Positions 15,605 through 62,042 of a stretch of 64,000 nt of DNA are shown in pieces. Numbering within the stretch: position 1 is the first letter of the stretch; each line of letters opens with the position of its first letter. A program made the position numbers and the translations under genes. The DNA is taken from positions 9,908,181 through 9,972,180 of the forward strand of contig OX424570.1 in the NCBI GenBank assembly GCA_949152475.1, in the 5' to 3' direction. The stretch comes from Terebella lapidaria (taxonomy: Eukaryota; Annelida; Polychaeta; Terebellida; Terebellidae). The notes beneath the pieces were generated by a model. It ran no database searches and was not told the origin of the DNA. It worked only from the letters and a program-made list of their open reading frames with translations.

Positions 15605-15983
15605 GCAAGAGGAGGGATGTTGTTGCCGACCTGAATGATGAGGAAAGAGTGAGTGAGTGAGTGAGTGAGTGAGTGAGTGAGTGAGTGAGTGTGCTCCTAT
15701 ACGTAAATTATGTACTCAAATATAATTTTGAATATTCATAGTGATGTTAACCCATTCCACGTTATTTTGGTTTTTGCCTTGCCTCGAATCATCATAAATT
15801 TTGCTCTGCCCACACAGTAACACTTTACATTAAATAACTTTACCTCCTGCCTATAACTTTCAATAACAGGCAGAGTTTGTTGAGTTCCTGAAGGATGTGG
15901 ATGAGTTGGAGCTGGCCTCTCAGGAGCAGAATGCAGATGAAGTTGGTGTGCAGGATTGGGATGATTTCAGTTGGTGGGATTAG
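15605..15983 (+). CDS. Partial peptide-precursor gene: last two exons with acidic, Trp-ending tail
   Basis: Two exons are readable. Exon 15605-15648 follows ttctttttgtag, enters in phase 1 and leaves in phase 0; it reads (G)KRRDVVADLNDEER. The donor gtgagt follows. Exon 15870-15983 follows caataacag and reads AEFVEFLKDVDELELASQ, then QNADEVGVQDWDDFSWWD and stop, with AATAAA at 16022-16027. KRR after a possible Gly would be a processing/amidation signal at the end of a mature peptide, and the remainder is an acidic C-terminal propeptide. Exon phases (1 then 0) match the other peptide genes in this window, and the AEF start resembles EAEF and EDRF in the 61.2- and 18.8-kb genes. I searched upstream to about 11 kb and could not find the signal-peptide exon, so the gene is either partial here, has a distant first exon, or has lost it. 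Confidence 0.55.
15649..15692 (+). repeat. (GTGA)n microsatellite starting at a splice donor
   Basis: About eleven GTGA units begin exactly at the 5' splice site of the preceding exon, so the donor GTGAGT is itself the first repeat. Every fourth base offers another GTGAGT site. Confidence 0.85.
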
Positions 15984-16029
15984 GTATAGCAATGTACATC
16001 ATATTCTTATCATATCATATCAATAAAAT

Positions 16030-18000
16030 GATGGTTCGATTGTATCATGGTCCAATGTGTATTGTGTCGACTTATTACCACTAATATGTAATTTTGCTGA
16101 CGTCAATAGAACATGGATAATCAGACATAGTGTCCTATAGCACTCTAATGGCTGTACTTATAATATACATCTTTCACAATCTTCTTTTCACATTTTTCAC
16201 ATTATATTTTATAGCAATACGTTTGTACCTGACGACACTGACGAATGTTTTGTCTATGTATTCCGCCCAGGCCAGGCAGGATACTAGGAAGAAATATCTC
16301 CGTCAATGAGAATGCCTGCTGCCGATCAACGATGTTGATTTGAACACACACATGTACGTTCAACCATTGATCTTCAAATAAACACTCATTTCCGAAGAAC
16401 ACATTTATGTGAAATGATAATCATAGTGCAATACACAGATGACATAAACACGTTGTAGCTTAACTCATGGGATAATGGGTGTAATACCAATATAAACATA
16501 TTTTAAATGTATGCCCCTAATCTGTCTTCAGGAGATCATTGCATCATATAATATCATATTTTGCTGGCAAGTATCAAAGTTAATTATGTTCCCAATAATG
16601 TTAAGAGCCTCAAACCATCCTTTGTGATAGGCTCCTCTGATTGAAAGAGCGAATGTTACTGGCTCGTATAAACAAAGTGTAGTTTTCAAGTGTATTTTTC
16701 AAGGATATAAGGAAAGGATTTGTCCGTCATTGTGAAACCAGTATCAACATACAACCGTTTTTAGAACCTAAAAAATACGTTTGAGCGTATAGCGTATGAA
16801 AATATAATGTATATGAATTTAATGAACACTTGTTATATGCCATAAAGGTTTATTCAATTTTCTGATGAAACAAATCGCATGGAATAGGTGTATGTCGAGT
16901 ACACATTTAACCAATCACAAGACAGAAGGCCTGATACAAACTGTTACCATATCCGATTCATTATGGTCTCATTTTATTAACACCCCTGTATCAGTTGGCA
17001 CCTGAAGTAAACTTGTTCAAGATAGTGGTATGCCCCCGAGTGTCATCTGTGTTGATCTACAAACACCCACGTAAACCCACGTATTGAAACACAAACGAAC
17101 TGATAGCTATTCAGCCTTGATCGTGTATGGGTGCGATACTGGGGGTGAACTCAATTTCTTGTTCACTTCAAATAAAATATATTCATATTATAAACCACAA
17201 ATGTATAAGTGACTCGCTAGTATGACGTGTAGTGGAAGTTTATATTATATCATAGCAGAGATTAGCAGGATATTGTCAGAGGGACTACAGGGAAAGAGCC
17301 GAGTACATATCAAACTGGATACTTTCTTGGCGCTTAGAAATTGGAATGTAGGCCCTGATATATGCATGTTTGCTCTTCGAAAGCAAGTTTCAGGATATAT
17401 CGCTTTGCTTTTACATTATTAATAGTATTTATTGTATTCACTATAAAACACCATATATGATATTCAAATATAATATACATATATCAATTACCGCTTAATA
17501 TACAGATAAAACAGTTTCTATCGTATCTGCTCCTAACGATGCACATAGGTCTCATGGTGTTGATGACTCTCAAAAGAGTAAGTGAAAGTTTTTTCAGCAT
17601 ACACCTCACAATCGTCTTTGATCATTTGTCATTCCCATTACTTTTTTTCCACGGAATTAAACTGTAATTCGAATTCAAGATGCAATTACTATTGTCTAAC
17701 ATACTTAAAATTATTCAATAACTTTTTTAATGTACTTTGTTAAAGTGGCAAGACACGAAATTAAAGTATTGAAGTATCACATGGTCCTGTAGAAAAAGTA
17801 TGTATGTTATGAAGTACACGATTGGGTACTTTTTCATGTGAATAGATTGGCGAATTTATATGCGACAAAACACGTAATAACGATGATTGCTCATACACTC
17901 AGAGATCGTTCACCTGGCTCAATTATATAGTATATCATATAAAAAACATCAAGTTCACTAGAAAATGGTAATAAAACAGCTAATATTGCATTCTCGAATC
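16030..18000. other. No gene seen
   Basis: AT-rich sequence with only short open frames on both strands (66 codons at 16202-16402 minus and 17222-17422 plus), without signal peptides, domains or paired splice sites. Probably intergenic spacer upstream of the 18-kb promoter. Confidence 0.5.
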
Positions 18001-18011
18001 CACTCGGGGAT

Positions 18012-18102
18012 TATAAAAGTCAGTCGCGAAACCTCCACAGTCATCTGGTTAGGTTTAGTGATGAAATAACAGTCCTGGTGTTTTTTCCTGCATACTAAGA
18101 AG
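18012..18102 (+). promoter_or_regulatory. TATA box and noncoding first exon of the cationic peptide gene
   Basis: TATAAAA at 18012-18018 is followed at a normal distance by a putative transcription start near 18042, and then by a consensus donor (aagaag|gtaagt) at 18102/18103. The next acceptor, ttctcacag at 18812-18820, abuts the start ATG at 18821, so the 5' leader would be a separate exon. The same ATG-after-AG arrangement is seen at 27371 and 61184. Confidence 0.5.
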
Positions 18103-18820
18103 GTAAGTCATCAACGGCTAAATGTGCATTTTTTCAGAGAAAAAATGTAGGGTTAGGGTGCTCATTTTCTTACACATCTTTTGTTATACTATATAATAGG
18201 AAATTAAAGCTGGTATTACTATATTACAATAGTTTGTGATACAATTTCAGGAAAAATATGTCTCATTGATTTTGCTAAAAATTGATTGTTGTGAAATTGG
18301 CCCAAAACGTTTAAATTGGGTGAAATTACCAATGATTCCAGGCCTATATATTCGATCAATTTATGTTCTCGAAAGTGCAATGTCACATTGATGTTTGTTC
18401 AAAAGTGTTGAAATAATCACACTCTAGCTCATCTGAGTGGGTCTCGCTTGTCCTCGAGCTTCATAACGACATAATCTACGTCAATGACTATAATTCACTG
18501 GCCATATTTCCAAAGTCTATGTTCACACACTGTTCGTTACCTCATAGGTGGTATATCGCACATATGTGAAGTGCGTTATGTGATGAATGATGCTACCTGT
18601 ATTCCCACTAACCCCTAGATGCACAGCAGTAACTGTGGCCCTGCATGTATGACCAGAGTCTCCAGAGTCACATTTCTTCTCATAGCTGCTCTGTAGTATG
18701 GAAATAGTTGCCCAGTGCCCACTCCCACATCCATGTTTTATTTTGATGTAATGTAGTATTTTCCCGTGTTTTTTGTGATACTCTCTAGCTCTTCTAGTCA
18801 TAGTTAAATATTTCTCACAG

Positions 18821-21554
18821 ATGCGCTGTAGTATACTACTGGTGGCCCTGTGCTTTGCACTTCTCGTCATCCCAGACGCTTCGGCTTGGAGAAGGCGCAG
18901 CTTTCGTGGACGAAGGTTCTTCCGCAAAATCGCTCCTCGTATCCCCAGCAAGTTGAATGTGTTCAAACCTGGTAGAAAAGTATATAAACTGCACTTCCAT
19001 TTAGTATCTTTGATATTCGGTATTGTAAGTGCAGACTTTTTACGAATAGACTCGGCGTGGCATAAATAATACGTGATGCAATATAAGCACTGCGTTGTTT
19101 TATGTGATATTGTAATCACTCTTTGTTGTAATGTTGATATTTTTGGTAATTTATGCAGAAATTTTGCCAATAATCACAAGTGCAGATGATCAACAGATCA
19201 CATTGCAGTTCCAGGACAAACAACAAGTAAGTGTACGGCATTATTTCAAAGACAAATTTGAATTACATTTCATATGATATAATCGCACTGAAAAATATGT
19301 AGTGAAATTAAGTGTAATTAATCGGTTTTTGGTTTTCCGGTTAAAAGAGACCAATAGATGTACCCAAAGTAGATCTAGCTGTACAGTGCAAAAGTTCAAA
19401 TGCGCACACGAATGTCTAAATTTGGCATTGAGAATCGGATTTTAAAAACACTTTCGCACGGACAGTTTCCATGCAGTGCCGCTAAATTAACGAGAAAGTC
19501 AGACCTTCGCCCTTCCAAATTTAGTTTTACCGAAAAAAAGTTGATAACCCTTACATTTTGTACCTGGACGATAATCAGGGATTTTGGTCGTACTATTATC
19601 ATTGGTCATATCAAATGGTTGGAAATTGGCCTTATAAAAATACAAAAAATATGGAAGAAATAATCATCAATAACGGTAGAGTTCTTTTTTTGTTTTTATC
19701 TTGAACATATTCTCGACCTGTCGACCACGACCTGAATTCTTGATACTGACAACCCAAACCCAAACAAGCCGGCTCTCACAACTTTATACTGCATACTTTA
19801 ATTCAATATTCTTTTGAATATTGTCAATGGTTTGGGAATTATCACACCTTGAAACACTACGAATCAGTGATTTCAGCTGATGACCCTTACACTTTCTACC
19901 TTGGGCGATAATGGGGATTCTGATCATAGGACCGTCGGTCGTACAGCGATTGATGGGAATTGAGCACAGAAAAATACAAAATCATTCAGAGAAATTAATC
20001 ATTAATATAAGCAGAGTTATTGCAACTTTTCGAGTTTGATCTTTTATCTGACCTTGACCTTGTTGTTTAATATTGAGTAGTAAAATGTCACAGTATTGTT
20101 TCTATCATCCAGGCACATGTCCTGAACGAAAATGGGTTAAAACGATTGAAAACTAGCTTCACAATATATGGCCTCGAATCTCAGAACACTCAAAAGTCCT
20201 AAAATCGTGACCCTTAATTTTTTGTCACTTTTTCCGTTGCCATGGCAACCGTTTTTATCTAATTTTAAGGAAGACTGAGCCACTGCCATATAGTTTCATC
20301 CCTATAAATTTATCATCGACCAGACCACTTGCATGGGTAACAAAAATAGCTGAAAATATAGAAAATTATACCTCACTTGAAGTTTGTATATGTAAGGTGA
20401 ATTATAGTTGTGGAGCCACTTATGTTGCTCAGATGTAAACAATTCGTTCACATCATGCATTCTTACAGTATGTTCAAAGTCCACTGCAGGGTCATGCGTA
20501 CATATTTTCGGGGTTGTAATGGTGATATATCATCTAATATATGCCAGCCAATTGATTGATAACGAATTTCGCACGCCGATTATTCCACTTTATTTGTTCG
20601 CGCCCGTTGCGATACAATCGGAATGGGCTGGCATTACTTCGAAATGATTTTGTTTGAATATATCTATACATTGAAAAGAATTCTGATCCAATTTTGAATG
20701 CATTACGAATATATGGGCTCATTTTGATAACAATCCTGAATGTTTTACTGATGCCAATAAATGTTAAGGTACAACTGAAATTGAGAAATATCTAACTGCA
20801 TCCAAAGTATATGAAGATAACTGCACATGGATTGCATTGCGAATATTTCTGAAATACTCAAACCGTATTTAACTCATCTTGTTCCCATTGTAGAGATAAT
20901 TGAGGCTAGAAGCCACTCAAAGTCCTGCGAAAATGTATGGACGTTGCTGTATATTAGGTTGATGTGTATTGGAAATAGTGTACCTTCTAAGTAGATTCTA
21001 ATGATTGGGTCGTAATCATGCAGTAATCGAACCAGAGTAAGAGTTTCTAACTATACCACAGGTGTATTTCCACGGACAATTCATTCATAATACATCAAAC
21101 TAAAAGGTACTCATACGTACTATAAAAAAAAACATTCAAGGCGGATCCGTCACATATTCTTGATATTTGAAAGGCATATCACTATTTTTTTCTCATTTTG
21201 CCGAATATTGCAAATTTCGAGGGGAGGGTGGGGGAGTCTTCATTTTGGCTGGTTCGGCAATTCACTGAATAATAGTGAAAGGCCATACATTTTTTTTCAT
21301 ATAATCCGCCATTCTAATGAAAAAATTTTGAATGGAACTGATCCTCCGATCTCCAGAGTCCATGTGACACTATTTTACATGTTTGATATGGAAAAATTAT
21401 TGATCAGTAACCGTCAGGACCGTTGATTCCATTCCAAAACAACCTGCAGGAGGACCGGTTTCTTGACCTGGTGCAACAAATGAATGAGTATGGACTGTCT
21501 GACTTGGATCGCGAGGTTGAAACAGGAGAGGTTGATGGAGCAGTGGACGGGTAG
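18821..21554 (+). CDS. Secreted precursor of a strongly cationic Trp/Arg/Phe peptide (putative antimicrobial peptide)
   Basis: Exons 18821-18971, 19159-19226 and 21450-21554 join in phases 1 and 0 to give a protein of about 107 residues. Residues 1-22 are a classical signal peptide (MRCSILLVALCFALLVIPDA, then SA). The next about 28 residues are highly basic: WRRRSFRGRRFFRKIAPRIP then SKLNVFKP, with ten Arg/Lys and no acid. Exon 2 reads ILPIITSADDQQITLQFQDK; exon 3 (EDRFLDLVQQMNEYGLSDLD, REVETGEVDG) is acidic. Cationic core plus anionic tail is the usual plan of invertebrate antimicrobial peptide precursors. Exon 1 uses donor cctg|gtagaa: the downstream gtatat would give the wrong phase for exon 2. 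AATAAA at 21839-21844. Intron 2 (2.2 kb) holds diverged tandem repeats. I do not recognise the family; function is inferred from charge and layout. A 215-codon frame runs antisense over exon 1 (see findings). Confidence 0.65.
19540..20060. repeat. Two diverged tandem units in an intron
   Basis: The block 'acccttacattttgtacctggacgataat..gggattttggtcgta...aaaatacaaaaaatat' at about 19545-19740 recurs, diverged, at about 19885-20060 ('acccttacactttctaccttgggcgataat'). Period is about 340 bp. It lies in intron 2 of the cationic peptide gene and ends in a 'gaccttgaccttg' stretch. Confidence 0.55.
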
Positions 21555-26984: not shown

Positions 26985-27101
26985 TATATAAGCCAGTGTT
27001 TGGGGAATACATTTCATTGCGTGTGTACCTTGACAGAAGAGCACCCACAAGATCATAATCTTGACGTTCAGACTCCGACAAGAAGGGCAGAACACTGAAA
27101 A
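26985..27101 (+). promoter_or_regulatory. TATA box and probable 5' leader of the Pro/Arg peptide gene
   Basis: TATATAAG at 26985-26992 is followed by about 100 bases of leader that could end at a donor-like gaaaaag|gttggt near 27101. The coding exon begins with ATG at 27371 directly after a ccgaccag acceptor. This mirrors the layout of the 18-kb and 61-kb genes. Confidence 0.45.
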
Positions 27102-27370
27102 AGGTTGGTCGCACTGAACATATGGTAAGCCGCAATTGTTTGCTCGTTAATGAGCACTTTTCCAGAGCCGATAAAGCAGCAAATGCAGATGAATCACTAT
27201 CAAACAATCAATCAATCGATCAATTGATTAATCAGTTAGTTCAGGTAATGAAAACTGGCTCAAGGTACATGTACATGATGTTTTCGACAATAAATTATAC
27301 TTAAATATGAAATTTAGTGGCATTGATTGCACCATACACTCATATTATTTTTTTCCAATTATCCGACCAG

Positions 27371-28016
27371 ATGAGGGCGACAACACTGACCATGTGTGCG
27401 CTGGTTCTGGTGGTAGCTGTGGTTGCAATGGTGGGAGCCTGCCCCAAACCTCCACCCCCACGCTACCGTTATCCGCATGCCGCACGTACGTGGATGAGTG
27501 TTCTGAGCTGGCGAATATCGTTATGATAATACACAATTGATGACTTAATTCCAACTGAAAGTCATATGCTTCATACAAACAGACTGGACCGGACCTAACT
27601 ATGTATTCAAAACTCGGACTTCATATTTATGTACCTGTAGTTCCTGTTGTATGCATATACCCATAATCGAACCATGGTTTACCCAGCTAAATATGGACTG
27701 AGTGAGTAGTATAGTAAGGTAGTATGATGTGTTTGCTCTCCTTATCAGGGATTCCCGCTCCGGGACGCGGCAGGGACAATCTAAATCCAGTGACATTTGA
27801 CTTCGAGTCACCTGAAGGGGTATGTTCATGCAAACTGATAATACAATTTCGTAAATAAAAAAGGATTATAAATTATAGTTTTTGCTACCACAAGCGCATC
27901 AAAATGTGACACTGGTTTTCGAAATGAACAATTAACTTTCACAGGCAGATGACTTCCGGCGCCTGGCCCAGTATTTTGCAGAGATGGAGTCTCCTGAAGG
28001 ACGTGACGACCAATAG
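27371..28016 (+). CDS. Secreted Pro/Arg-rich peptide precursor with duplicated ESPEG motif
   Basis: Exons 27371-27485, 27749-27819 and 27945-28016 join in phases 1 and 0 to give 85 residues. Residues 1-23 are a signal peptide (MRATTLTMCALVLVVAVVAM). The mature start is CPKPPPPRYRYPHAA, followed by RIPAPGRGRDN: Pro-, Arg- and Tyr-rich and basic. Exon 2 ends FDFESPEG; exon 3 reads ADDFRRLAQYFAEMESPEGR then DDQ, so ESPEG occurs once per exon, suggesting an old internal duplication. The amphipathic DDFRRLAQYF segment is similar in kind to exon 3 of the other peptide genes here. AATAAA at 28055-28060. Pro/Arg-rich secreted peptides are often antimicrobial; that role is inferred. A broken copy of exons 2-3 lies at 41335-41632. 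Confidence 0.65.
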
Positions 28017-28310
28017 AAGGATTTATTGTAAACATGCGATGAAATTGTCATGAAAATAAACTGTAAATCATCCACAATCATCATACATTAGTGTTGTGTT
28101 GCTAAACCTGAGAACAAACACCACAACAAGTTTGTAGGGAAATCTTATTAGGGAATGAATTACTTTTCATGTAATAGGCTCTGTAAGTCTTGTTCGTCTC
28201 AAGTCGTCAAATAACGTAAATGGGTACGTAATGTAGTACTTACGGGTCCGAACAGTGCCACGTGGTCATTTTTGCCGGGTTGCCGTGGGTTCAGAAGCAC
28301 CACAAAAAAA

Positions 28311-29242
28311 GATGATTTGGAACAGAATAATAAACTTTTTTTATGTTCCATAAAATAGCTCTCCGTTACTTATTTGTGTTGAGTATAGCACGAAAGATTT
28401 GAATGACTCAAATTGCTTCTTATTTACATAGTGTTTTATAGTGTGATTTTCGCCCCAAAAATTGCTGATGATTGAATTTTATTGGTGATGTTATGATATA
28501 AATGATGCCAGAAACACACGACAACACATACGGCCCACGAAACAGTGCATAAGTAGTATACTTCTACAGTTTTTCACAATCAATATCACCTTTTCTCTAT
28601 AAAAGATACTGTGTCTGAAATATACAAACACTGCATATTCACGCTCTATATTGAGCAGGAAATATTCGATGAAACTCTGAATAGACCAGCTCATGCCAAC
28701 TAGTATCTGTTGAAATTTGTGAAGTGGGTTTCTTGTGTATCTCCGATAAATTGCTTTTATATAGTGTAAAACCGCTGATGATTTGGAACAGAATAATAAA
28801 CTTTTTTTATGTTCCATAAAATAGCTCTCCGTTACTTATTTGTGTTGAATATAGCACGATAGATTTGAATGACTCAAATTGCTTCTTATTTACATAGTGT
28901 TTTATAGTGTGATTTTCGCCCCAAAAATTGCTGATGATTGAATTTTATTGGTGATGTTATGATATAAATGATGCCAGAAACACACGACAACACATACGGC
29001 CCACGAAACAGTGCATAAGTAGTATACTTCTACAGTTTTTCACAATCAATATCACCTTTTCTCTATAAAAGATACTGTGTCTGAAATATACAAACACTGC
29101 ATATTCACGCTCTGTATTGAGCAGGAAATATTCGATGAAACTCTGAATAGACCAGCTCATGCCAACTAGTATCTGTTGAAATTTGTGAAGTGGGTTTCTT
29201 GTGTATCTCCGATAAATTGCATTTATATAGTGTAAAACCGCG
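28311..29242. repeat. 466-bp tandem duplication
   Basis: Copy 1 (28311-28776) and copy 2 (28777-29242) both begin gatgatttggaacagaataa and differ at only a handful of bases. Neither copy has a convincing gene; the minus-strand frames of 67-108 codons inside are shared because the DNA is duplicated. Confidence 0.9.
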
Positions 29243-30854
29243 TGTATCCAAATTACATGATTGGGCCGAAAATTTGGCGGGAAATTCGAATGGTCCCAAA
29301 ATTATGAAATAACGCAAAATAACGTGACGTCTCAATATAATGACCCAAGTTGAATGATCCAGTCCAGTTAATAACTTCCGACGATCGAGAAGCCAATTTC
29401 CTCGCTACTTCAAGATTAGATAATTAAAATCAAATTTCCTCAAAATCACATTACAACACAAATAAGTAGCACATATTTCGCAAGAAAAAAAAACAACCAT
29501 GATCTTTTTTGTTGAATGTGCAACTAAACACCTTTTTGCAAGAATAATGGGCACCTCGACAGAAATTGCGGGTGAAAATCAAATTACGCATGGACACGCT
29601 CCACCCCAGTATGGTATTAGGGTGCTGAATAATAATTTCAGAGTAATTATATTACGAGTTCATGGTTTCGAGTTTCTTCTTTTGTTTAAACTGACCAATA
29701 GGCTTTAGTTGAATATCATTTTTTATGAACCTTCATCCTTAAATGTGTTTGTGTTTAGTCAGCCTCAAGTACTGGTTCAGTTCTCATTTGTCCCCGTTTC
29801 CGCACACGTAACATCAAGTTCTGCTGTTGTGATGCTTGTCGTCTGTAATGCTGATGTGGAACATGACAACCTAACGACATCCACATTTTCGTTCTGGTTC
29901 GTTCTTATACCTAGTAGTTCGTTGCTAATCTGTGTGAATTCTTTGCAGTTCATTCTATTTTCCTTGATCATATACATGTTCCGTTGCAGTTCATTTGACA
30001 CCCTCGCATGTCTCCACATTATTCGCCGTTGGTTACTGTCCTTTGCTGGGATTAAGAGCGATTATCGTTCTACATCGTCATACATCAATTTCGTTGGTCC
30101 CTCGCTAACATAACCATACTGCTTGGCACTGGGCCTAACTTCAAGCTGAATAGCACAAATATTCCCCGGTATTCTTTGTGATTCGCACCGATATTCGTAC
30201 TGATAACCACTTTATATATCAATAAAATAAGCATCAGTATGTTGATGAAAACTATAACGTAAGAGGTTGTTGACATTTCCGATTTTACACATGTATACTG
30301 TATTTTGTTTCTTGGTCAAGAAATCATCAAGTGAGTTAATTAGGTGATATAGTCGATGTGAGTCTGGTGTACATCGAAAATGATGCATTTTCAGTGAGTG
30401 AAACTTATTTGTGCTATTTAAAAAAACTAAAACTAGCAATTTTAGTGTAAGACCACAGGAATTCACATTCGTCGTCATTTCGTCACCTTCTATTTGAAAC
30501 ACACGTTCACAGTTTATACCCCCCTCCCGATTATGATTTATAATATCATTTTGCATGTATTGCATTTTATTTATGTGTCTCAACATATGTTTTATCAGAA
30601 TATTGTGGATGGCGAAGAAACTCGTGCTGATGGGCCACCATTCGAATAGATATTCCAGGAACACACAAGGAAAGCTATATGTAATCACATTGCAATCCAT
30701 GATCGATTGTACCAGCGATTGTTAACTTAAACAATTGTTAAATTGTTAACTTGTCAGATGTTATTTGAAATATACTGAATCATTGTGAATCCGTGAGTTA
30801 AACTTCAGATCGGTTAATCCTATTTGTTTGAACAACAAACAATGTTTAAGATGA
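29243..30854. other. No assigned gene; possible decayed coding sequence on minus strand
   Basis: At 29777-30110 the minus strand reads MWRHARVSNELQRNMYMIKE, MNCKEFTQISNELLGIR and, upstream beyond a stop, EGPTKLMYDDVER, which has protein-like composition but matches no family I know. It could be a mobile-element ORF remnant. A 162-codon minus frame at 30212-30700 has no domain or signal peptide. Neither is called as a gene. Confidence 0.35.
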
Positions 30855-40099: not shown

Positions 40100-40290
40100 A
40101 TGGAATATGGAATTTTTACCTGGTCATGTCAATCAAATATGGAATTTGTACCTGGTCATTTCAATCGATCATGAAATTTGTACCTGGTCACGTCAATCCA
40201 ATATGGAATCATGTATCTGGCTATATCAATCGAATTTGATATTTTCACCTGGTCATGGCAGTTGTATATTACATTTGTACTTGGTCATGC
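40100..40290 (+). repeat. About 35-bp minisatellite, copy 1
   Basis: Unit tatggaatttgtacctggtc followed by atgtcaatcgaa, five to six imperfect copies. The duplicate at 54030-54252 has one more unit. Confidence 0.8.
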
Positions 40291-41334: not shown

Positions 41335-41632
41335 CTAACTGTTACATACATGTACCCATCATCGAACCATAGTCTACCCAGATATATGAACTGAGTGAGT
41401 AGCATAGTAAGGTGAACATGATGTGTCAACATCCTCACTAGGGATTCCCGCTCCTGGACGTGGCAGGGACAATTGAAATCCAATGACCTTTGACTTTTTT
41501 GCAGCGATGGAGTCCCTGAAGACCCAATAGAATGATTTATCGAGAACACGCGATGAAACTGTCAAAGAAAAAACTGTCATCATCACCAATCACATTAATG
41601 TTGGTGTTGCTAAACCTGAGAACGAACAACAC
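41335..41632 (+). pseudogene. Broken copy of exons 2-3 of the Pro/Arg peptide gene
   Basis: Aligns with 27628-28125: intron end, then GIPAPGRGRDN-encoding sequence (41440s, with a stop after RDN), then the reading jumps from tttgacttt directly into gcagcgatggagtcc, so the exon 2/exon 3 intron and flanking coding bases are deleted. Downstream cgatgaaactgtcaaagaaa and ttgctaaacctgagaacgaa match the 3' region of the intact gene. No exon 1 is present. It places a former peptide gene at the start of the second duplication unit. Confidence 0.75.
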
Positions 41633-41637
41633 ATTAA

Positions 41638-49481: not shown

Positions 49482-50608
49482 GATGAAGTATCTGGCAGTG
49501 TGTATTGCACTGTGTGTGTTGGGCTATGTTTCCGCTATCTACTGCCCACATGGTATGCGAGCTCACAACAACAACTGCTACGTCTACGTCGGCTACCAGA
49601 AGACCTCCGCTAAGGCCAAGGCCCTTCCTGTTTAATTTTCTGTTTCTCGTCCCCGCGTGCCTAGCTTTTTGCGAAATTTTGAGAAAAAACAAACAAGATA
49701 AATGTGTAATATTATGGAAATAAAAGTGATTTTGACACACACAATTCCGCCAATCTCTGTAAAGCTTACCCATATTGGTCTCGCAGCAAACTCATCTGAC
49801 TGGCTTGTGTCTATACAAGATGTATCCAGAGTTTTGAACAGACTAACATTTCAAATTAACAATTCTTACCGCGAATAAGTTTCTAAGATTCAATATGAAA
49901 CTATGATATATATTCAGATGCTGAAAGACATAGGTCCCCCACCCAAGCATCGTTTGCATTCAGAGAATCATTGCATGGTATATCACATTTTATTTGTTGG
50001 TCTGTTTGTTTATTCCGCCCTCCCTCCTAGCTTTTGATTTTCCAAAGGACGAGAAACCAAAAATTAAACAGGGGTGGCCCAACTATTATTGCCGTATGAC
50101 ATTCGCAGGCTCCAGGCTCGCCAGCATCTTGAGTAGTGCCGAGAACAGCTACGTCAGGAGTCTGGGTTCTGGTCAGTGGCCTTTTTACTATATTCCTACC
50201 AACGTAGCGAGTGGACACAGTGACTGATACAAAGACGTCATTATGCCCCAAAATTAGGGTATTGCATGATGGGTGAAAGAATCTGAGAAAGTTATGCCTA
50301 TCACTTGACTTTCAGACTGCTTTGTCTATGTAACAAAACGAATGCCGTGAAATAATTATACATCGTTCTCTGGTATGTTTTTTGTTGTAGCACCAGACAT
50401 CTGGATTGGTGGCCGTGCCAAAGTGCCGTCATCCATGAGGTTCTCCTGGCAGGCCTGTGGCGCCACCCACTGGTACAGCAACTGGTATCCTGGTGAGCCT
50501 AACAATCACGCATACCTAGAGCCAGAAGACTGCATCCAGATGAAGCAGAATGGACAGTGGAACGACATTGCCTGCTCGCGAAGATTTAATTTTGTCTGCA
50601 AAGTTTAA
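49482..50608 (+). pseudogene. C-type lectin gene split by a transposon in exon 1
   Basis: Exon 1 starts at 49482 (MKYLAVCIALCVLGYVSA, IYCPHGMRAHNNNCYVYVG, QKTSAKA) and is cut at about 49619, resuming at about 50080 (YYCRMTFAGSRLASILSSAE) to the donor at 50171. Exon 2 is 50391-50608 with WIGGR, WYPGEPNN, WNDIACS, FVCKV, differing from the 36.5-kb exon by only a few bases. The 460-bp insertion adds stops within five codons, so translation would end at about 47 residues. Apart from the insertion every lectin element is intact, and the splice sites and AATAAA (50634-50639) are kept, which points to recent inactivation. The inserted DNA has no splice sites at its edges, so it is not an intron. Confidence 0.8.
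49620..50079. mobile_element. Short inverted-repeat element (MITE) inside the lectin exon
   Basis: Left end ggcccttcctgtttaatttt, ctgtttctcgtcc; right end reverse-complements to ggccacccctgtttaatttt, tggtttctcgtcc: an inverted repeat of about 33 bp. The flanks suggest a 3-bp target duplication, CAA (…GCCAA | element | CAACTATT…). A 3-bp duplication with GG-starting ends would fit a PIF/Harbinger-like MITE, but I am not sure of the family. No coding sequence. Confidence 0.75.
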
Positions 50609-51786
50609 TGTAAATGAATGTATTACGACCGCTAATAAACAATATTGGCATATACCAGAAAGACAATCAAGGCAAATACCGTTGTTAGTGCTATTATATA
50701 ATAACCTAAATAACTGTCAACAACTTAGGCCCGAGCGCGGAACTCATAGTTCGGACTAAGTTTTAACTTCTCCTATGTAACTTTTCTATGTCCTATTTTT
50801 CTTTGCCAAAGTGATACTTGGTTCATAAGGCCCAGTGCTGATCTCGTATACTCTAAAGTAGAACTTGCCCGTTTATTGATCTTTGCTTAGTGTGACTTTA
50901 GTGTCACTTTTACCAAGTTCAACTTGGAGTGCTCATCCACTGGAATCTAGAAAACTAACTGAAGTTTAGCTTAATGCCATATGCCGCTCCTAATTTCAAG
51001 CAATACATGTAGTATTGAGATGTATTTTCAGTGCATTAGACATGCAGTTCACGTGCGACTAACGAATATGTGGACCTGGGTATAATTTTGTACAGTTTGG
51101 GTGAACTTATATTATTCAATCATGACTGCGGTGAAGAAACGTAACAAATCCATGTCGGCTTATGGCAATTTATGTGTAAATAAAAACAAACACAAAAGTG
51201 TGATGAAAAAAAAAACAAATATCGATATATCCAGACCACCTTGCCACGATTTTTTGCATTTTTAGGTCGGCTTCACCAATGACTTGGACATTGAACGAAA
51301 AGTATTTTTTCCACAATTTCGGTACAGTTCCACTGTATCCTCACTCGGACACTAAAGTAGAATTTTCTGGTTTAGTGATCGTTTTAGGGTTCAACTTGGA
51401 GTTGGAATATCAAGCAAATCTCGATGTAAAAGAGTCAGCGAAATCAGAGTCACTATCATGAAAGTGGCCGTTTATAGAACCCCATATCTCCCTAAGTTTT
51501 CACTTAAAATCCGGGCTTCGGGAGGGCTACTTTCTCAGATAATAAGTTGTCAGTACCAGAAAAGTGCTACTACAGTTAAACTTTCATGAATGCATGGCCA
51601 AAGGATCAGCACTCGGCTCTGGAAAGTAATGTGTGTGCGGTTATTGCACCAATTACTCCCGGAAAGCCACAAATGTTGTAAAAGATTTGTAGAACATTTG
51701 GGATTTTTGGGGGGATTGCCATCGGGCATGACATTGAAATTGCCTCACAAAGCAGCTAGAGGGTTTAATACATTCATAACAACCAG

Positions 51787-51823
51787 ATGTCGGATCATAA
51801 ACAAGATGTTTATGATCCGACAT
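51787..51823. other. Perfect 17-bp hairpin (copy 2)
   Basis: Identical to the hairpin at 37974-38010, in the same relative position of the duplicated block. Confidence 0.75.
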
Positions 51824-52914
51824 GCAGTTGTGCTAAGCGCATCTCACAAATCTACCACTGGCATTTGGAAAGTTCCGATAAAACAGAAGAGCAATCAACA
51901 TCTGCAGAAAGCTTTGGAACATCCTGCAAGTCTGTAATGATTCGATCATGCCTACTGAGATATTCGGAAAATCGGAAACTTGCATAAATTTCAATTCCGT
52001 GAATATCATCTTATTGAACAATGAAATCCACTACACGTCCATTCTCACCAATTTATTGTCTTTGTCATGGACAGCTGGCCAACTATATAACTCACTTATA
52101 TAAAAAAATGACCGTTTAGGGAACCCCATACCTCCCTGAGTTTCCCATTGGAATCTGGGCTTCGAAAGGGCTACTTTCTCATTATAGTAAGTTGTCAGCA
52201 CCAGAAAGAAAAACTAAAATTGGAGTGAGAATCAACATTTGACCCATAGTCCTAAACATACCCCATTACTATGTTGCTGAATGTCTCAGGCTATGTAGAA
52301 ATTTACGTGAAATCAACGCTTAGTATGAATTCTAACGCTAAATTATGTGAAAAAGTCATCAGGAGTAACTGAGGCAATTACGACACTAAATGTGAAATAC
52401 CAACCAAGGGTCAAAATATGTCATCATGCCTACTTTTTGCTCATGCAACATTTATATAACTGTTCTTCAATTTGAAAATTTACCTTTAAAATGTCACTAG
52501 AATTGTTCAGAAATTGTATTGAATAGTTGGATAGTTAACAGTTACTTACTTTGACTGATGGCCATAATGTTGTTTTATAGATCTGAAATGCATGTCATGA
52601 TGTCATTAACATGTGTACCCATAGAGAAAGATTGTGCATATATTTGCATACATTTTGAGCAAAGAGCTAAAAGTTAAATTTTGGTCTTTTTGTTTTGGAG
52701 CCTAGATTTTGGGCCTTTCGAGCGTTTCAAGGCATTTGAACTTTATGCAACTTACAGATGGTCTGAAGTGTCACTTTCGCGTGAAATTAGAAAGAACAAT
52801 GCTGAACAATTTTTGACAAAATGATCGTCAAAGGGCAGACTCGGCTGCTTTCATTGGAAAATGACCGTCCTTTGAAAGAAGAATGCGAAAATGGGGGAAA
52901 AAATAACAAACATT

Positions 52915-53945
52915 AAATTCCTAGCTACCTCATACATCCGAGGGATGACAAAGTTATATTCTGAAACTTGCTTTGATCTGTCTAGAGTGCTTCTGCTATT
53001 TCCGTTTGACCGATATGTGATCTCGGACCTAGACCTTTGAAAAATCTGACAACCTTGCTCTGAGCAACTTGAAGTTTTTGTGTTTGTCTGACGTTTAACC
53101 CCGTATACCAAGATGAAACACCAAAGTCGAAATGACACTGTATGCGATCTGATGTTAACAACTTGCGAGATTTAGGGCTCGTTTATATGGATACATAAAT
53201 TCGAGCCGTGAACTACATTTGGATACAATTGGGTTTACAATTTTTTTTACCTGATAGTACATTGTCCAGGTGAAGACGTAGATATTTTACTTCATTGGAC
53301 GAGTTAATCATACTTGACATTCAATGACAAAATTAGTTGTGATGTGACGCTTTCGCGTAGAAGACAACACAATAGCTTCAGTTGTCCCCATGTGCATTGA
53401 TAATAGATTATTAGTTAGCCAATGATAATAATTTGAAATCGACATACAAAGCTCCGTGGAAACAGTGCTGAGGTTGTTGTCACAGACAAGCAAAATAGTA
53501 TAATCTGCGTACATTATAAGTTGACAGTATTTACAACACTGGGCATATCATTACTATATATCAAGGATAAGAATGTTCCCTTGAGGTACACCACATTAAT
53601 GGTCAGTTCAGATGGCAAGCAGTTATTTACTATCGCACATTGTTTACGGTGTGTTAGGTATGAGCAAAACCATTCCGGATCAATTCCGATAAGTCTGATT
53701 TTTCGCATAATAAGTTGCGATCGACACTGTCAAAAGCCTTTTGTACATCTAATAAAGCCATGCGAACAAATTTACCTTTGCTGATTTCGGTCCAAATATA
53801 GTCATGGAGGTATAATAAACATGTGTCAGTTGAATGGCCACCTCGAAAACCCGATTGAAGCGGCTATAGTGTATGATTCATTTTACAAAAGTGTTCGACT
53901 TGTTTGTGGACAGCTTTTTCCAGTACCCTAGAGATGGAAGTTAAC
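52915..53945 (-). mobile_element. LINE reverse-transcriptase fragment (Jockey-like), copy 2
   Basis: Paralogue of 38985-40005. Minus-strand blocks include IDPEWFCSYLTHRKQCAIVN (53650s), IYSNDMPSVVN, MYADYTILLVCDNNLSTVST and NNLLSMHMGTTEAI. It shares the changed YADY box and the frameshifts of copy 1. Confidence 0.75.
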
Positions 53946-54029
53946 ACACTAGGGGCTGCTTCGATCCTTCAAACAAGCACTTGATTTGTTTGACTTGCTC
54001 AGCGAGATCTTCTGAATAATTAGACCCAA

Positions 54030-54252
54030 ATGGAATATGGAATTTTTACCTGGTCATGTCAATCAAATATGGAATTTGTAACTGGCCATGTCAATCGAAT
54101 ATTGAATTTGTACCTGGTCATTTCAATCGATCATGAAATTTGTACCTGGTCACGTCAATCCAATATGGAATCATGTATCTGGCTATATCAATCGAATTTG
54201 ATATTTTCACCTGGTCATGGCAGTTGTATATTACATTTGTACTTGGTCATGC
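54030..54252 (+). repeat. About 35-bp minisatellite, copy 2
   Basis: Same unit as 40100-40290 with one additional repeat (containing gtaactggccatgtcaatcg). Confidence 0.8.
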
Positions 54253-55441
54253 ATACTCTGATTTTCCTAAATCGTTTGCACTGCCAAATTTTAAAAGTCG
54301 GCAATCTACCCCAATGATAAGTTTAGCTTCATGATTGAACTTATGGACCCGCCTTCGATTCTGTGCATTTGCTCGCTTGTGTAGTATTGCAATTCTTCGA
54401 AAAATCAAAATCTGCCTGTTTGTGTAGAATACATCCCGACAACAACGAATACCTATGGATGTAAACATGACCAAATCCACAAATATGCTCCGATTCCTTA
54501 GACCCGTATTGGGCTAAAATTCAATACTATAGTTGAAAATCTGAAATTCTGTAGAAAATTGCGGTTTGACTCCCGGGTGAAGTATGCCAAGTCATAAAAC
54601 GATTAGCAGCGCCAAGATATCAACAAATTTGACATTTGTTCATGGTCATAGCAATCGAATATGACACAACTATAATTATCGGGGTTTACCATGCAGCGGA
54701 TATATCAGCCTCTTGACTCGTTCATTCAGTAAAAGTATCAATTTGCAATTGAACAACTTGAGACATTTGTAATATCATACATAATATGATATTAATATAA
54801 ACTACTTTTATACAAGTACATTCCATAATTTAGTAGGGGTTGTTATCAAAGTACTGATATTTATGGATTGCATATCATCCACAAATTAATATACATATCT
54901 TTCATATTCAAGTGTGTTGAAGTGGCTTACAAAAGTGAATGCAATTTGTCGTTATGAGTAATAAATTTGGTATAAAAAGCAACTTGTCTTCGTACACTAT
55001 CTACATACCGAAATTTCTCAACATGAATTGAGGTGGTGAGTGTTTCAACGTGATATTGTAACTCTTTATATGTTATCATGGTTTTCATCCATGGAACGAA
55101 ACTTTACATGTCCATTTTAATAATTAAACCAGATCAGAATTCGATGTGATTGAATATACACTCAACCCTTTACTATAATTTCTTTTTGCATACATTCTCC
55201 ATATTGAATGGAGTACATACGTAAAATGTTAAGACTATAGTTTTCGTTAGATGAACTCGCGTCATGTCTAGAATCTATCACCAATCACTTCTGGTCCTAG
55301 ATATAATGAATGCAATGAATGTGCGTACGCAAGGAAATATTTGCTCGTTTTAGTGGTTTATGTGAATAAACTGTTATACTGTATTTCTAACTTTTATTGT
55401 CTGTGGATTCTACTTAGTGATCGCCGCTGAAAACAGACACC

Positions 55442-56257
55442 ATGCGAACTTTGTTGTTGATTCTGCTGATCACCTTTGTTTTCTCGAACCACGTGGACGG
55501 TTGGTGGTGGTCGAGACCTGCTCCAGCACCAGCGCCAAGTCCTACTCCAGCACCAACCCCCAGGCCTACTCCAGCACCAACCCCCAGGCCTACTCCAGCA
55601 CCAACCCCCAGGCCCACTCCAGCACCAACTCCCAGGCCTACTCTAGCACCAACGCCCGCGCCTGCTCCGGCACCCACCCCTGAGCATGCGTCAGGATCAT
55701 CCCATGATTCAGCCTCCATGTCGGCTTCCCATGCCAGCGATCAGTCAATTTCGAAAATGCGCGAAGTGAATCCACGTGGGTATTATGACCAATCAGAAAT
55801 ATATAACATCATATCTTCGTCATACCAATGAAATTATCCAATTGAAGGTACTCCAAGTCCCAGCATGTTCTAAAATGCCATGAAAACCATTTAATGTGTG
55901 TTTCTGTTCTATATTTTGTTTAATTGAGAATAATCAGAATATCGTATACCTTATGAAGACAAACTATACTTAAATAAAAAAAGATTTACCTACATGCAGA
56001 TGACGCGAGTCGAATGTACATCCAAAAAGACTCTGCAGTGAGTGGCGTTTACATGTGGTTTTATTGAATGATAACCGAACATATTCTCAGCTACGCACCA
56101 TTTCAACTACACCAACACGTTCTGTTTTTATGTACATTTATTTTATGTACTTATGATTGGCATGATATCACAATGTATATTTCTCTATACATGCGTTGTT
56201 CTTTAGAACAAAATGGAAGATGGGGAACTCCGTGCACAAGGACCACCGATTAAATGA
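55442..56257 (+). CDS. Secreted WWW-starting, Pro-Thr-Ala repeat peptide precursor
   Basis: Exons 55442-55775, 56000-56037 and 56207-56257 join in phases 1 and 0 to 140 residues. Signal peptide [20 protein letters not shown]; mature start [14 protein letters not shown]; then five imperfect 8-residue repeats of the type PTPRPTPA (24-bp units, about 55546-55665); a Ser/His/Ala stretch; REVNP; exon 2 [12 protein letters not shown]; exon 3 [16 protein letters not shown]. The start, the DASR block and the GPPI ending match the 57.8-kb gene, which proves the exons belong together. The donor after exon 1 is weak (cac|gtgggt); read-through would give a 129-residue form ending [22 protein letters not shown] at 56354-56359. 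Function unknown; Pro-rich antimicrobial, mucus or matrix peptide are all possible. Confidence 0.7.
55546..55665 (+). repeat. 24-bp coding tandem repeat
   Basis: About five units of caacccccaggcctactcca plus gcac, each encoding the 8-residue Pro-Thr-Arg-Ala pattern. The unit keeps frame; a poly-Gly/Val-type antisense frame arises from it and is not real. Confidence 0.85.
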
Positions 56258-57710: not shown

Positions 57711-57717
57711 AGTAGCG

Positions 57718-57812: not shown

Positions 57813-58493
57813 ATGCGAAGTTTTCTGTTGATTCTCATCGTCACCCTACTCTTGACTTACCAAGTCGAGGGCTGGTGGATGGGCCGTAGAGATAGATCCC
57901 GATCCTCCCGCTCGGTGGATTATCATTCCAACACTCTGAAACAACATAAGGTCAACCCGGGTCAGTAATTTGTGGTGCATTTCCAAGTATAGTGTACATG
58001 TAGTGGTGTTTTGTGGTTAGCATTTTTTTTTCGCAAATTACTATGACATACTAAAGAAACAATGCAACACCGAGTACCAATTTTTTGATAAATGACCAGT
58101 TCTACAATGAAACAATTGTAATGTACAAATCTACATAATGTACATAGTATGCTTTAAAAACGTATGACATACATTCCACATCATTTCCCACTGTTCACGT
58201 ATATGTCCAGCTTACTAGTATATCAATACCCTGGACTGATGATTATCAAACGATTCTTAAACACACAGGTGACGCGAGTCGGGTGAACACTCAAGATGAT
58301 GCCTTTGCTGTGAGTGCATTTGGCATAACTTTGTTTCATAGCCGAGTTTATTAGCTGGCTCCCTGAAGAGCCTAAATCCTTTGTTCCCGTAACTGGGGTT
58401 GGTAGTAAGGAATTACGTATTTCTCTACACATTTCCTTTCAGTACGATGTGGATGACGCGGACACTCGTGCACGAGGACCACCGATTGAATAG
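57813..58493 (+). CDS. Secreted WWM-starting Arg/Ser-rich peptide precursor
   Basis: Exons 57813-57960, 58269-58309 and 58443-58493 join in phases 1 and 0 to 79 residues. Signal peptide MRSFLLILIVTLLLTYQVEG, mature start WWMGRRDRSRSSRSVDYHSN then TLKQHKVNP, exon 2 GDASRVNTQDDAFA, exon 3 YDVDDADTRARGPPIE. Paralogue of the 55.4-kb gene: signal peptide, WW start, VNP-(G/H)-DASR junction and RA(R/Q)GPPI ending are shared, while the Pro repeat is replaced by an Arg/Ser-rich segment. The first half is basic and the second half acidic. AATAAA at 58585-58590. Putative host-defence or other secreted bioactive peptide; family not recognised. Confidence 0.7.
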
Positions 58494-59645: not shown

Positions 59646-60630
59646 TACACAAACACACAAACTGCATAATGTCAACAGGTTCGTCTGTTTGATCGATGGG
59701 ACATTATCGATCAATTCGATGATTAACAATATTAATCGTTTAAAAACTATCAGATTTTGCAGGAGCGTATAAACCTAATTTACTTACATAAGCAACTGAT
59801 TGTAGCCAGCACTATTATCCAAAAAAAGAAATGAACATGCTGGTACCAAAGTCAATATAAAATCACAAATACTTATGCCTGATCTGACACTTAAATTGCT
59901 GCCCATACCAAAGTAAATCATCATCTACTAGCAGGGACTATAAACTGGTATAGCAGTGATTCGAGTATCACTCTTATTACTGTACGATAGCGTTATATCG
60001 AGGCTGATAATTATCATGATATAGCCAGACACTTCTTGAGTACTTCTGGTTTGAAACAATAATTGAAGCGAATAAACACGAGATGTTCAGTCGTGTAAGT
60101 TTGTATTATAATGTGCTCCACAAGCGAGTATCAATGAAAACAGAGCTGAACTGATGAAACAGACACTTGTACATTTAACGGGCTAGGCAGGCGTACTGCA
60201 TCCTTAACGTAGGAACATACAACTTCAAAGATAATTAAGCAGTTTTTCCTCTTTTATATTTTCCCTTTAACATTCAGATAAATGGAGAGAGGGGGTTGGG
60301 ATATCAAGCCTCATTATCTTTCACCTTTTGAATTATTCCTGTACGAAAGAACTCAATATCCCCGATTTAATTACCAATATGAATCTCTAGTTTTTGGTAT
60401 ATTGATACATTTTCGACTTTCAAATACTTATACTCTCCTGTATAGAGAGTTTATTTGCACAAAAATGAGATTATTTGCACAAAAAGGCAATATGTACTGG
60501 GACAGTTTTGTTCATATATCGAACTTTCCACAGTAATAAAACTGGTGGACATGCATAAATGTCTAACATAAAGCAATATAAGTCTTTCATTTTTCAGAAT
60601 GTAATCATTATTCGCATGCTGGTGTTATTA

Positions 60631-60715
60631 TATAAAGGTGGTAACTTAGCGCGAGTCAACATTACTTTAGAGACTAGAAGCCAATTGCGACCACACTACA
60701 GTTGACAACAACAAA
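60631..60715 (+). promoter_or_regulatory. TATA box and noncoding first exon of the 61.2-kb peptide gene
   Basis: TATAAA at 60631-60636, probable start near 60660, and a consensus donor (caacaaa|gtgagt) at 60715/60716. The acceptor gtacttcag abuts ATG 61184. An alternative nearer TATA-like box lies at 61095-61102 (atataaaa). Confidence 0.5.
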
Positions 60716-61183
60716 GTGAGTAACTAATAGGATGAACTAGCATGCAATCTGTATATGGTTTCTGCAATTATAGTTGTATTCAAAATTGCAACCAGTCATG
60801 TTTCGAGTGTTGTGTTCATACTGGTGCCCCAGCCAGTTTCTAGTGACCTTGTCTGTCATACCGTTATTCATGGTTATTTCAAATCAGTGGTAGATATTTT
60901 ATGATCATGTCGTGTAGGATATGAGTCGATTCAGTACAAACTATGTATACACCAGTTGTACACCATAACATCAAACTAGGTTGAATTTCACAATGTTTGC
61001 CAACAGTTCCGATACCACCCAATAGCTATTTTAGGCTTGCTTTGGTCCTCATAAAAATCTGGTTCTATTGTGGGTGCTAGGTTTTTACATGCACATATAA
61101 AACTAAGCAGATCAACGAGAAGTATACGGACAAATTCAGCACTAGTACCTTATGTACGACTCTGTCATATCGCTGTACTTCAG

Positions 61184-62042
61184 ATGTTGAAGCCCACGAC
61201 TCTAGTGATCCTGGCCCTGTGTTTGGCGGTTATGGTCGCGTCAGATTCTGGTGCTGGTCTACAGAGAAGGCATGGGTATTGGTGGGGTCATAGTGCAAAA
61301 AGAGGTCAGTGAATATGTTGCTACTTCCAATTTTCGGTTTTGATTGTAGGTAGATGCACAATTGTTACTATCTCATACAATATTAAAAAGATGAAATAAG
61401 GATGACTATGTACCGGGGTTTATGTAATTGATACATACATCAATCAGTGCAAGGGTTGAATTTCACCAGCAAAATTATTTTCTGTATGGGCTATGCGGGA
61501 ATGCTGGTATATTGTATAGAAAAAATGGCGCCATACATCCCATGAATTTGCTCGTAGAGGCTGCCAAGGCCTCTGTTGACGCGGATCGTCGCACCAAGGA
61601 CTATCCCAAGACCATCACTCTAACTTTGGCGGATGCGGTTCAGGTATTGTAGAATTGCCATGACAAGTAAAGTCACTACATTTCGCTGCCAGCAGCACTG
61701 TGGCAAAACAGAATGGGAGGGACAGGGAGGATGTTTGACAGCAAATTAAACAACGTTTTAAGATGTAACTTGGTAAGCTATACATACCACCAAGCTTTCA
61801 CACCATTGTTTTCGCACGTTTGGACCTAGAATACTATTTTGTCAGATAATGTTGTATTGAAGCAATGGTGCTTACACAATCAATTCCAGTCATCCGTACA
61901 TATGACCAATTACCCACATGTTGATTTTTATGCACAACACTATGCATCCTAAATATATATACATCACGATTACTCTATTTTATATCTACAGGAGGCTGAA
62001 TTTGAAGAAGTTTATAAACAGGTTAAGAGTCGTAAACAATGA
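61184..62042 (+). CDS. Secreted peptide precursor with dibasic-flanked HGYWWGHSA segment
   Basis: Exon 1, 61184-61304, ends in phase 1: signal peptide MLKPTTLVILALCLAVMVAS, then DSGAGLQRRHGYWWGHSAKR. Exon 2 starts after gctcgtag at about 61559 and ends at 61645 in phase 0: EAAKASVDADRRTKDYPKTI then TLTLADAVQ. Exon 3 starts after atctacag at about 61992: EAEFEEVYKQVKSRKQ and stop. RR and KR bracket HGYWWGHSA, so furin/PC-type cleavage could release a short Trp/His peptide; alternatively the whole basic segment is the active part. A fourth exon is possible, because CAG|gttaag and atttcag (62168) exist and an AATAAA lies at 62250-62255; then the C-terminus would change to NFWACEVRDHVAAYSS. Which form is used I cannot tell. 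Confidence 0.6.

What the first reader, a model, noticed from the sequence alone, without database searches (positions are those of the whole stretch)
15605..62042. Cluster of small secreted-peptide genes sharing one exon plan (intron phases 1 then 0)
Five genes (18.8, 27.4, 55.4, 57.8, 61.2 kb) and the partial one at 15.6 kb share the same plan: exon 1 with signal peptide plus a basic, Pro- or Trp-rich segment ending in phase 1; a short exon 2 (phase 1 in, 0 out); a short last exon, usually acidic, often beginning (A/E)xxF. Three put the start ATG directly after a splice acceptor. Mature segments are unrelated in sequence ([53 protein letters not shown]), as expected if a conserved leader/tail scaffold has diversified its payload. 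Seen: exons and phases. Inferred: common origin and defence role.
Basis: partly seen in the sequence, partly recalled or inferred. Interest (0 to 1): 0.85.

Follow-up and report, generated by a model that had tools for sequence, protein, structure and literature searches.

The report
Annelid defence-peptide gene cluster, swappable payloads
What looks like a worm chromosome carries a long row of small secreted-peptide genes built on one shared gene plan but carrying very different, probably microbe-killing, peptides, much as mammals do with their cathelicidin genes.

Summary
In detail: exons, splice sites and phases (1 then 0) are present for the five named genes; the 15.6-kb one has exons 2-3 only. 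The host is most likely an annelid (mitochondrial contig; gene order recalled). The window shows about a third of the array: on the same strand, eleven more genes with three coding exons lie at 65-156 kb (window coordinates), and seven whole-genome protein searches gave only weak hits outside C17:9.72-10.07 Mb. Key case: 61.2 kb and its sister at 86.4 kb, with signal 14/20 and tail 26/41 identical, payload 6/18, and DNA similarity confined to exons and a 3' piece. Outer members carry CxCx3-4CxC cores, protegrin-like, so one array holds Trp-, Pro- and Arg-rich and hairpin-type payloads, like mammalian cathelicidins, but with the payload in the first coding exon and no cathelin or BRICHOS domain. 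The plan also resembles mussel myticalins (intron before the ATG, phase-1 intron after the payload). Common origin is supported within subfamilies, moderately between most, not by tail sequence for the 55/57-kb pair. Expression and antimicrobial action are untested.

The parts
15605..15648 (+). Orphan/partial gene g15: exon 2, phase 1 in, 0 out; begins GKRR, a possible amidation and cleavage site, if the missing exon 1 ended in G
15870..15983 (+). g15 exon 3, acidic tail AEFVEFLKDVDELEL..., stop
   Evidence: no exon 1 found upstream
18012..18103 (+). g18 TATA-like box and possible 5' untranslated exon, donor GTAAGT
   Evidence: loose pattern match
18821..18971 (+). g18 coding exon 1: signal peptide plus WRRRSFRGRRFFRKIAPRIPSKLNVFKP; ATG abuts acceptor
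19159..19226 (+). g18 exon 2, phase 1 to 0
21450..21554 (+). g18 exon 3 (chosen from 15 candidates), acidic, begins EDRF; 2.2-kb intron before it
   Evidence: homologue at 120735
26985..27125 (+). g27 TATA-like box and possible 5' untranslated exon
   Evidence: loose pattern match
27371..27485 (+). g27 coding exon 1: signal peptide plus CPKPPPPRYRYPHAA; ATG abuts acceptor
27749..27819 (+). g27 exon 2, contains GRGR|DN cleavage-like site
27945..28016 (+). g27 exon 3, acidic tail ADDFRRLAQYFAEME...
30599..30649 (+). Orphan third exon of the 55/57-kb type (NIVDGEETRADGPPFE, stop), acceptor present
41339..41633 (+). g27-like pseudogene fragment: in-frame stop, exon 2 joined to exon 3 by a deletion
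55442..55775 (+). g55 coding exon 1: signal peptide plus WWWSRP and Pro-rich array of 24-bp repeats (6.8 copies)
56000..56037 (+). g55 exon 2
56207..56257 (+). g55 exon 3
57813..57960 (+). g57 coding exon 1: signal peptide plus WWMGRRDRSRSSR...
58269..58309 (+). g57 exon 2
58443..58493 (+). g57 exon 3
60629..60716 (+). g61 TATA-like box and possible 5' untranslated exon
   Evidence: loose pattern match
61184..61304 (+). g61 coding exon 1: signal peptide plus LQRRHGYWWGHSAKR; ATG abuts acceptor
61558..61643 (+). g61 exon 2
61992..62042 (+). g61 exon 3 EAEFEEVYKQVKSRKQ

Best explanation
This is the upstream third of an annelid tandem array of host-defence prepropeptide genes. Most genes appear to have their own promoter (TATA-like box and downstream donor in 11 of 15 by a loose pattern), an untranslated first exon, an intron ending at or just before the ATG, a coding exon with signal peptide plus payload, a phase-1 intron, a short middle exon, a phase-0 intron and a short last exon. 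The signal peptide sends the precursor out of the cell; the exon 2-3 tail (acidic in g15, g18, g27, g57, g86, g155; near neutral or slightly basic in g55, g61 and most hairpin members) is cut off, at basic sites where these exist (AKR|E, RCRR|, GRGR|D, GKRR|D), freeing a peptide that binds and damages microbes. New genes arise by tandem duplication; in some lineages the payload part of exon 1 then changes much faster than signal and tail, giving Trp-, Pro- and Arg-rich linear peptides and CxCx3-4CxC cores expected to be disulfide hairpins. Shown: exons and phases in DNA, tandem paralogy within subfamilies, exon-only conservation in 61/86. Inferred: splicing in vivo, promoters, processing, disulfides, antimicrobial action, single origin of the subfamilies.
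For: 13 of 15 gene models examined were complete with phases 1,0 and one frame; the 14th (18.8 kb) was completed. In the exon inventory over 244 kb the genes with three readable exons are all on the + strand. 61.2 versus 86.4 kb: DNA similarity confined to signal part, exons 2-3 and a 3' piece; identity 14/20 signal, 26/41 tail, 6/18 payload; dS about 0.6 in signal and tail, payload saturated. Hairpin group of 8: four Cys invariant while the other rows are 27-67% identical to the first. Exon-1 mature part has net charge +3 to +11 in the six linear/86-kb members (signal ends set by hand). Seven whole-genome searches place relatives in this array. No Pfam cut-off reached. C-type lectin exons lie inside the array.
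Against: No transcript or peptide data. In 7 of 8 hairpin precursors the exon-1 mature part has net charge -1 to -4, and in 6 of 8 the tail has charge 0 to +3, unlike a classical cationic payload with an anionic tail; the 55- and 61-kb tails are neutral. No dibasic site at the payload/tail border in the hairpin genes, nor in 18.8, 55.4, 57.8 kb. Tail similarity between subfamilies is weak, and absent in pairs with 55/57 kb. Faster payload change is not general among the hairpin genes. The 61/86 and 55/57 payload comparisons rest on short, uncertain alignments. The strand comparison is a weak control, since tandem genes share a strand; no control regions from elsewhere could be had.
Confidence: 0.68

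Rival explanations
1. Two or more unrelated small-peptide families (55/57 pair; 61/86; 27; 18/120; hairpins) that sit together in a defence-rich region and share phases 1,0 by convergence or chance, each diversified on its own.
For: Tail z-scores between subfamilies mostly between -1.6 and 2.5 (with 18.8 kb represented by exon 2 only); the 55/57 pair has no pairwise tail link and no acceptor of score 11 within 15 nt of its ATGs.
Against: Intron ending at or within 15 nt of the ATG, then phases 1 and 0, in 12 of 14 models; same strand; genes interleaved (86.4 and 120.3 kb lie among hairpin genes); exon-2 alignment of five representatives reached by 0 of 1000 shuffles.
Confidence: 0.3
2. Secreted signalling or neuropeptide-like precursors: amidation-type sites (GKRR, GRGR) free small regulatory peptides, not antimicrobials.
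For: GKRR in g15 and GRGR in g27 look like amidation/cleavage sites; payloads are short.
Against: Payloads are not repeated within a precursor except the Pro array, are Trp/Arg/Cys-rich, and duplicate and diverge in tandem next to C-type lectins, which is usual for effectors and unusual for ligands (general knowledge).
Confidence: 0.12
3. Secreted peptides of another kind (venom, tube, mucus or surface coat) diversified by the same exon logic.
For: Fast payload change with conserved signal is also typical of such secretions (general knowledge); the 55-kb Pro array resembles structural repeats; many hairpin members are not cationic.
Against: Small size, strongly basic cores in the linear members, hairpin cysteine spacing; no gland data.
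Confidence: 0.12

Closest known systems
Myticalins and modiocalins (Mytilus, Modiolus; PMC5577615, PMC12294457; passages read)
   Same: Untranslated exon 1, intron right before the ATG, one exon with signal and hypervariable cationic payload, phase-1 intron, C-terminal extension, clustered tandem genes, E subfamily rich in W/P/T/R.
   Different: Known from mussels only, per those papers; tail mostly in one exon (here two, phase 0 between); dibasic site nearly universal there, patchy here; described as lacking cysteines (abstract start), while most members here outside the window have them; no sequence comparison made.
Mammalian cathelicidins (protegrins, Trp-rich and Pro/Arg-rich members)
   Same: Conserved precursor part with payloads from hairpins to Trp- or Pro/Arg-rich linear peptides (that range is stated in a passage of PMC10745061); CxCx4CxC spacing as in protegrin (recalled).
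   Different: No cathelin domain found (no Pfam cut-off reached); payload in the first coding exon, not the last (cathelicidin exon order recalled); 7 of 8 hairpin members have acidic mature exon-1 parts.
Annelid BRICHOS antimicrobial peptides (arenicin, alvinellacin, nicomicin, HfBRI)
   Same: Annelid precursors with a conserved pro-part and unrelated payloads, some of them hairpins (passages).
   Different: No BRICHOS domain; the only BRICHOS match found in this genome is a borderline one on C15.
Lumbricins and hedistin (annelid linear peptides; passages)
   Same: Pro- and aromatic-rich, or Trp-containing and amidated.
   Different: No Pfam cut-off reached; direct sequence comparison not made.

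Membership tests
Myticalin/modiocalin | 5' untranslated exon and intron ending right before the ATG | tested here: inconclusive
   acceptor at 0 nt in 6 of 14, within 15 nt (score 11 or more) in 12 of 14 models; TATA-like box plus donor upstream in 11 of 15 by a loose pattern without background; no transcript to prove the intron
Myticalin/modiocalin | Phase-1 intron between payload and C-terminal extension | tested here: met
   all 14 complete models
Myticalin/modiocalin | One last exon for the rest of the C-terminal extension | tested here: not met
   two tail exons, phase 0 between, in all 14 complete models
Myticalin/modiocalin | Lys-Arg site between payload and anionic extension | tested here: inconclusive
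   KR in 61.2 kb and RR in 86.4 kb at or next to the border, GKRR in 15.6 and GRGR in 27.4 kb, none in the others
Myticalin/modiocalin | Sequence similarity to known members | not tested
   no myticalin sequences fetched
Cathelicidin | Cathelin-like pro-domain | tested here: not met
   no Pfam cut-off reached by any of 10 proteins
Annelid BRICHOS AMP | BRICHOS domain in the precursor | tested here: not met
Host-defence peptide array (functional class) | Antimicrobial activity and immune-tissue expression | not testable with these tools
   no expression or assay data

The most novel reading that the evidence does not exclude
One ancestral annelid gene gave rise, by tandem duplication and payload replacement inside a single coding exon, to Trp-rich, Pro-rich, Arg-rich linear peptides and to protegrin-like CxCx4CxC hairpins: an independently evolved counterpart of the cathelicidin locus that lacks any folded pro-domain, and whose exon plan may be an old lophotrochozoan scaffold shared with mussel myticalins.
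Probability: 0.4. Interest if true: 0.78.

Novelty: new variant of a known kind. Interest (0 to 1): 0.6.

Why it matters
It would give annelids a second, BRICHOS-free, multigene source of defence peptides, with a graded series of duplicates in which the payload is seen changing class while leader and tail stay put. It makes the question of how hypervariable payloads arise (substitution, indel or exon-part replacement) testable within one array of about 140 kb, and supplies new peptide cores for antimicrobial work. The parallel to cathelicidins and myticalins would show that the same gene plan has been reached, or kept, in distant animals.

Tried and rejected
Phase-pair scan: once exon 1 is fixed, exons 2-3 can be found by chance in any phase (on the + strand 2 to 8 loci for each of nine phase pairs, 7 for (1,0) and 8 for (1,2); on the - strand 0 to 2), so the hits (25 on +, 0 on -) were not used as evidence for phases; several of its tail exons were wrong.

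Mussel origin of the genome, my first guess from the myticalin likeness: dropped because the mitochondrial contig has an annelid-type gene order (order recalled).

Arenicin-type (BRICHOS) origin of the hairpins: rejected.

Exon 1 for the 15.6-kb gene: searched from -5 kb to 15.6 kb, nothing convincing.

The 84.7-kb exon 1 of the hairpin type lacks the cysteines and I recognised no tail for it: treated as a remnant. The gene at 120.3 kb has an in-frame stop in exon 2 and is not counted as intact.

Literature: six payload strings (one of them from a - strand copy) gave 0 papers; the payloads of 27.4, 55.4, 57.8, 61.2 and 86.4 kb were not searched as strings. Searches on annelid defence peptides listed no array of this kind among the titles and abstract starts shown (20 of 77 papers, 20 of 60, 5 of 5, 10 of 28; also 2 of 2). 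They cover open-licence PMC papers only.
Full report
What was checked. I rebuilt the exons from the DNA. Genes at 27.4, 55.4, 57.8 and 61.2 kb give single open frames with GT/AG junctions and phases 1 then 0; for 55.4 kb I tried two exon-1 ends, and only 55775 is followed by GT. The 18.8-kb gene had no third exon in my first models; a scan of 19.2-26.5 kb listed 15 acidic candidates, of which I chose 21450-21554 (EDRFLDLVQQMNEYGLSDLDR...) for its start and acceptor. It later gained outside support from a gene at 120.3 kb with a related third exon (z 5.6; 0 of 5000 shuffles). The 15.6-kb element has exons 2 and 3 only.

Which animal. The window lies at C17:9908181-9972180 of a 761.6-Mb, 438-contig genome. 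Its mitochondrial contig (15,973 bp) has its genes on one strand, reads with the invertebrate code, and has the order cox1-cox2-cox3-nad6-cob-atp6-(repeat)-nad5-nad4L-nad4-rRNA region-nad1-nad3-nad2 (genes named by me from the open frames). I recognise this as the usual annelid order; that is recalled, not a tool result. The species stays unknown.

The array is larger than the window. tblastn of the exons against 244 kb around the window and seven whole-genome protein searches found more genes. In window coordinates, all on the + strand: 65.5, 75.6, 78.3, 86.4, 97.8, 117.0, 126.6, 134.1, 139.6, 149.3 and 155.8 kb, eleven genes with three recognisable coding exons; a gene at 120.3 kb with an in-frame stop in exon 2; and isolated or broken exon matches at 30.6, 41.4, 81.1, 84.7, 137.9, 147.5 and 154.8 kb. 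Upstream, seven hits of the 126-kb type lie on the - strand; in the four I read, the ATG at the matching place is gone, so I take them as decayed copies. Hits off C17 were weak (E 0.8 or more); the tool scores only the best candidates, so weak relatives elsewhere could be missed. In one search, 13 of 15 models were complete and all 13 have phases 1,0; with 18.8 kb that is 14. The models for 139.6 and 149.3 kb were not assembled; their exons match those of 134.1 kb.

Leader and tail stay, payload changes. The best case is 61.2 versus 86.4 kb. blastn finds similarity only in the signal part (61181-61253), exon 2, exon 3 and a 3' piece, not in introns or payload. Identity is 14 of 20 in the signal, 26 of 41 in the tail, 6 of 18 in the payload; synonymous divergence is about 0.6 in signal and tail but saturated in the payload. 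Saturation at synonymous sites too suggests replacement or indels rather than only selected substitutions, but so short an alignment may also be out of register. 55.4 and 57.8 kb show a similar shape (signal 9/20, tail 14/29, payload 10/29), with a 24-bp repeat expansion (6.8 copies) making the Pro-rich part of 55.4 kb. Among the hairpin genes the picture is mixed: payload against tail identity is 16/22 and 26/35 (65/75), 13/22 and 22/36 (65/97), 20/24 and 36/48 (97/117), 20/24 and 48/48 (78/97), 14/21 and 26/36 (126/134), 5/15 and 10/34 (126/155).

Hairpin-type members. Eight precursors align with four invariant cysteines: CMCYRGICIC, CVCYRGICVC, CVCWHICIC (three genes), CVCAWGFCYC, CLCAWFVCYC, CICYRNVCVC. 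The spacing CxCx4CxC (x3 in three genes) is that of protegrin (recalled). No solved-structure sequence matched the 65.5-kb precursor. Against a simple cationic-peptide reading, 7 of 8 have net negative mature exon-1 parts because of an acidic spacer; where the spacer is cut is unknown.

One family or several? Within subfamilies the tails are clearly related (z up to 25; hairpin A to hairpin B 3.2 to 7.3, lower, 1.5 to 2.3, for 155.8 kb with hairpin A). Between subfamilies single pairs are mostly not significant. Seven joint tests were run, 1000 shuffles each; shuffles reaching the score for exon 2 / exon 3: 15.6+18.8+27.4+61.2+65.5 kb 0/13; the same with 117 for 65.5 kb 3/66; 18.8+27.4+61.2+65.5 kb 2/46; 18.8+27.4+61.2 kb 3/616; seven genes including 57.8 and 126.6 kb 11/1; 57.8 for 15.6 kb in the first set 12/125; 18.8+27.4+61.2+126.6 kb 72/503. 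So exon 2 supports kinship of the linear genes in most sets, exon 3 only in some; and the 18.8-kb third exon was chosen partly for its start, which favours the exon-3 test. The intron near the ATG is further support: 12 of 14 models against a 16% background, though the 14 are not independent. I put single origin of all but the 55/57 pair at about two in three.

Known kinds. I read passages of two myticalin papers (PMC5577615; PMC12294457): untranslated exon, intron right before the ATG, signal plus hypervariable payload in one exon, phase-1 intron, C-terminal extension, tandem clusters, restricted to Mytilus and Modiolus. The plan here looks the same but for one more intron in the tail. A passage of PMC10745061 likens BRICHOS peptides to cathelicidins, whose payloads include helices, hairpins and Trp- or Pro/Arg-rich stretches; the present array shows the last three without BRICHOS (one borderline match in the genome, on C15) or a recognised cathelin domain. 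Passages of PMC6780910 describe lumbricins, hedistin, perinerin and BRICHOS peptides in annelids; nothing like this array appeared in those passages or in the listings; six payload strings gave no paper.

How it probably works, and verdict. Secretion through the signal peptide, removal of a tail, release of a membrane-active peptide; payload change after tandem duplication in some lineages. Anatomy and paralogy are shown; splicing, processing and activity are inferred. The finding is real and richer than reported; it is a new variant of a known kind (scaffold-sharing defence-peptide arrays), not a new category.

Noticed in passing
window 36536-36793, 48260-48544, and - strand 4526-4837 and 5675-6004; starts at 36137, 47788, 49483: C-type lectin exons inside and beside the peptide array: Pfam Lectin_C in 4 of 10 stretches tested, one of them just under its cut-off. 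Three lectin-like starts have an ATG near an acceptor and a signal-like core; the 36.1-kb one alone matched no Pfam family.
   Followed up: partly
window 36270-41320 and 50079-55277: Direct segmental duplication, 97% then 92% identical; it ends just upstream of the 55.4-kb gene, so the other copy has that gene's 5' flank next to a broken 27.4-like fragment.
   Followed up: partly
C17:9720660-9897270, - strand (upstream of the window): Seven matches to the 126-kb hairpin gene on the opposite strand; in the four read, the start codon is lost, and a third-exon match lies within about 500 bp in three of them.
   Followed up: partly
window about 28310-28770 and 28776-29240: Nearly identical direct repeat of roughly 465 bp just downstream of the 27.4-kb gene, seen by eye.
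   Followed up: no
window 15649-15690: The donor of the 15.6-kb exon 2 runs into a GTGA microsatellite.
   Followed up: no
window 39723-40010 (-): Reverse-transcriptase-like stretch, below the Pfam cut-off.
   Followed up: no
G000 C417:44633-46450: Second COX1-like copy in two pieces with TGA codons inside, perhaps a nuclear insert or another organism.
   Followed up: no
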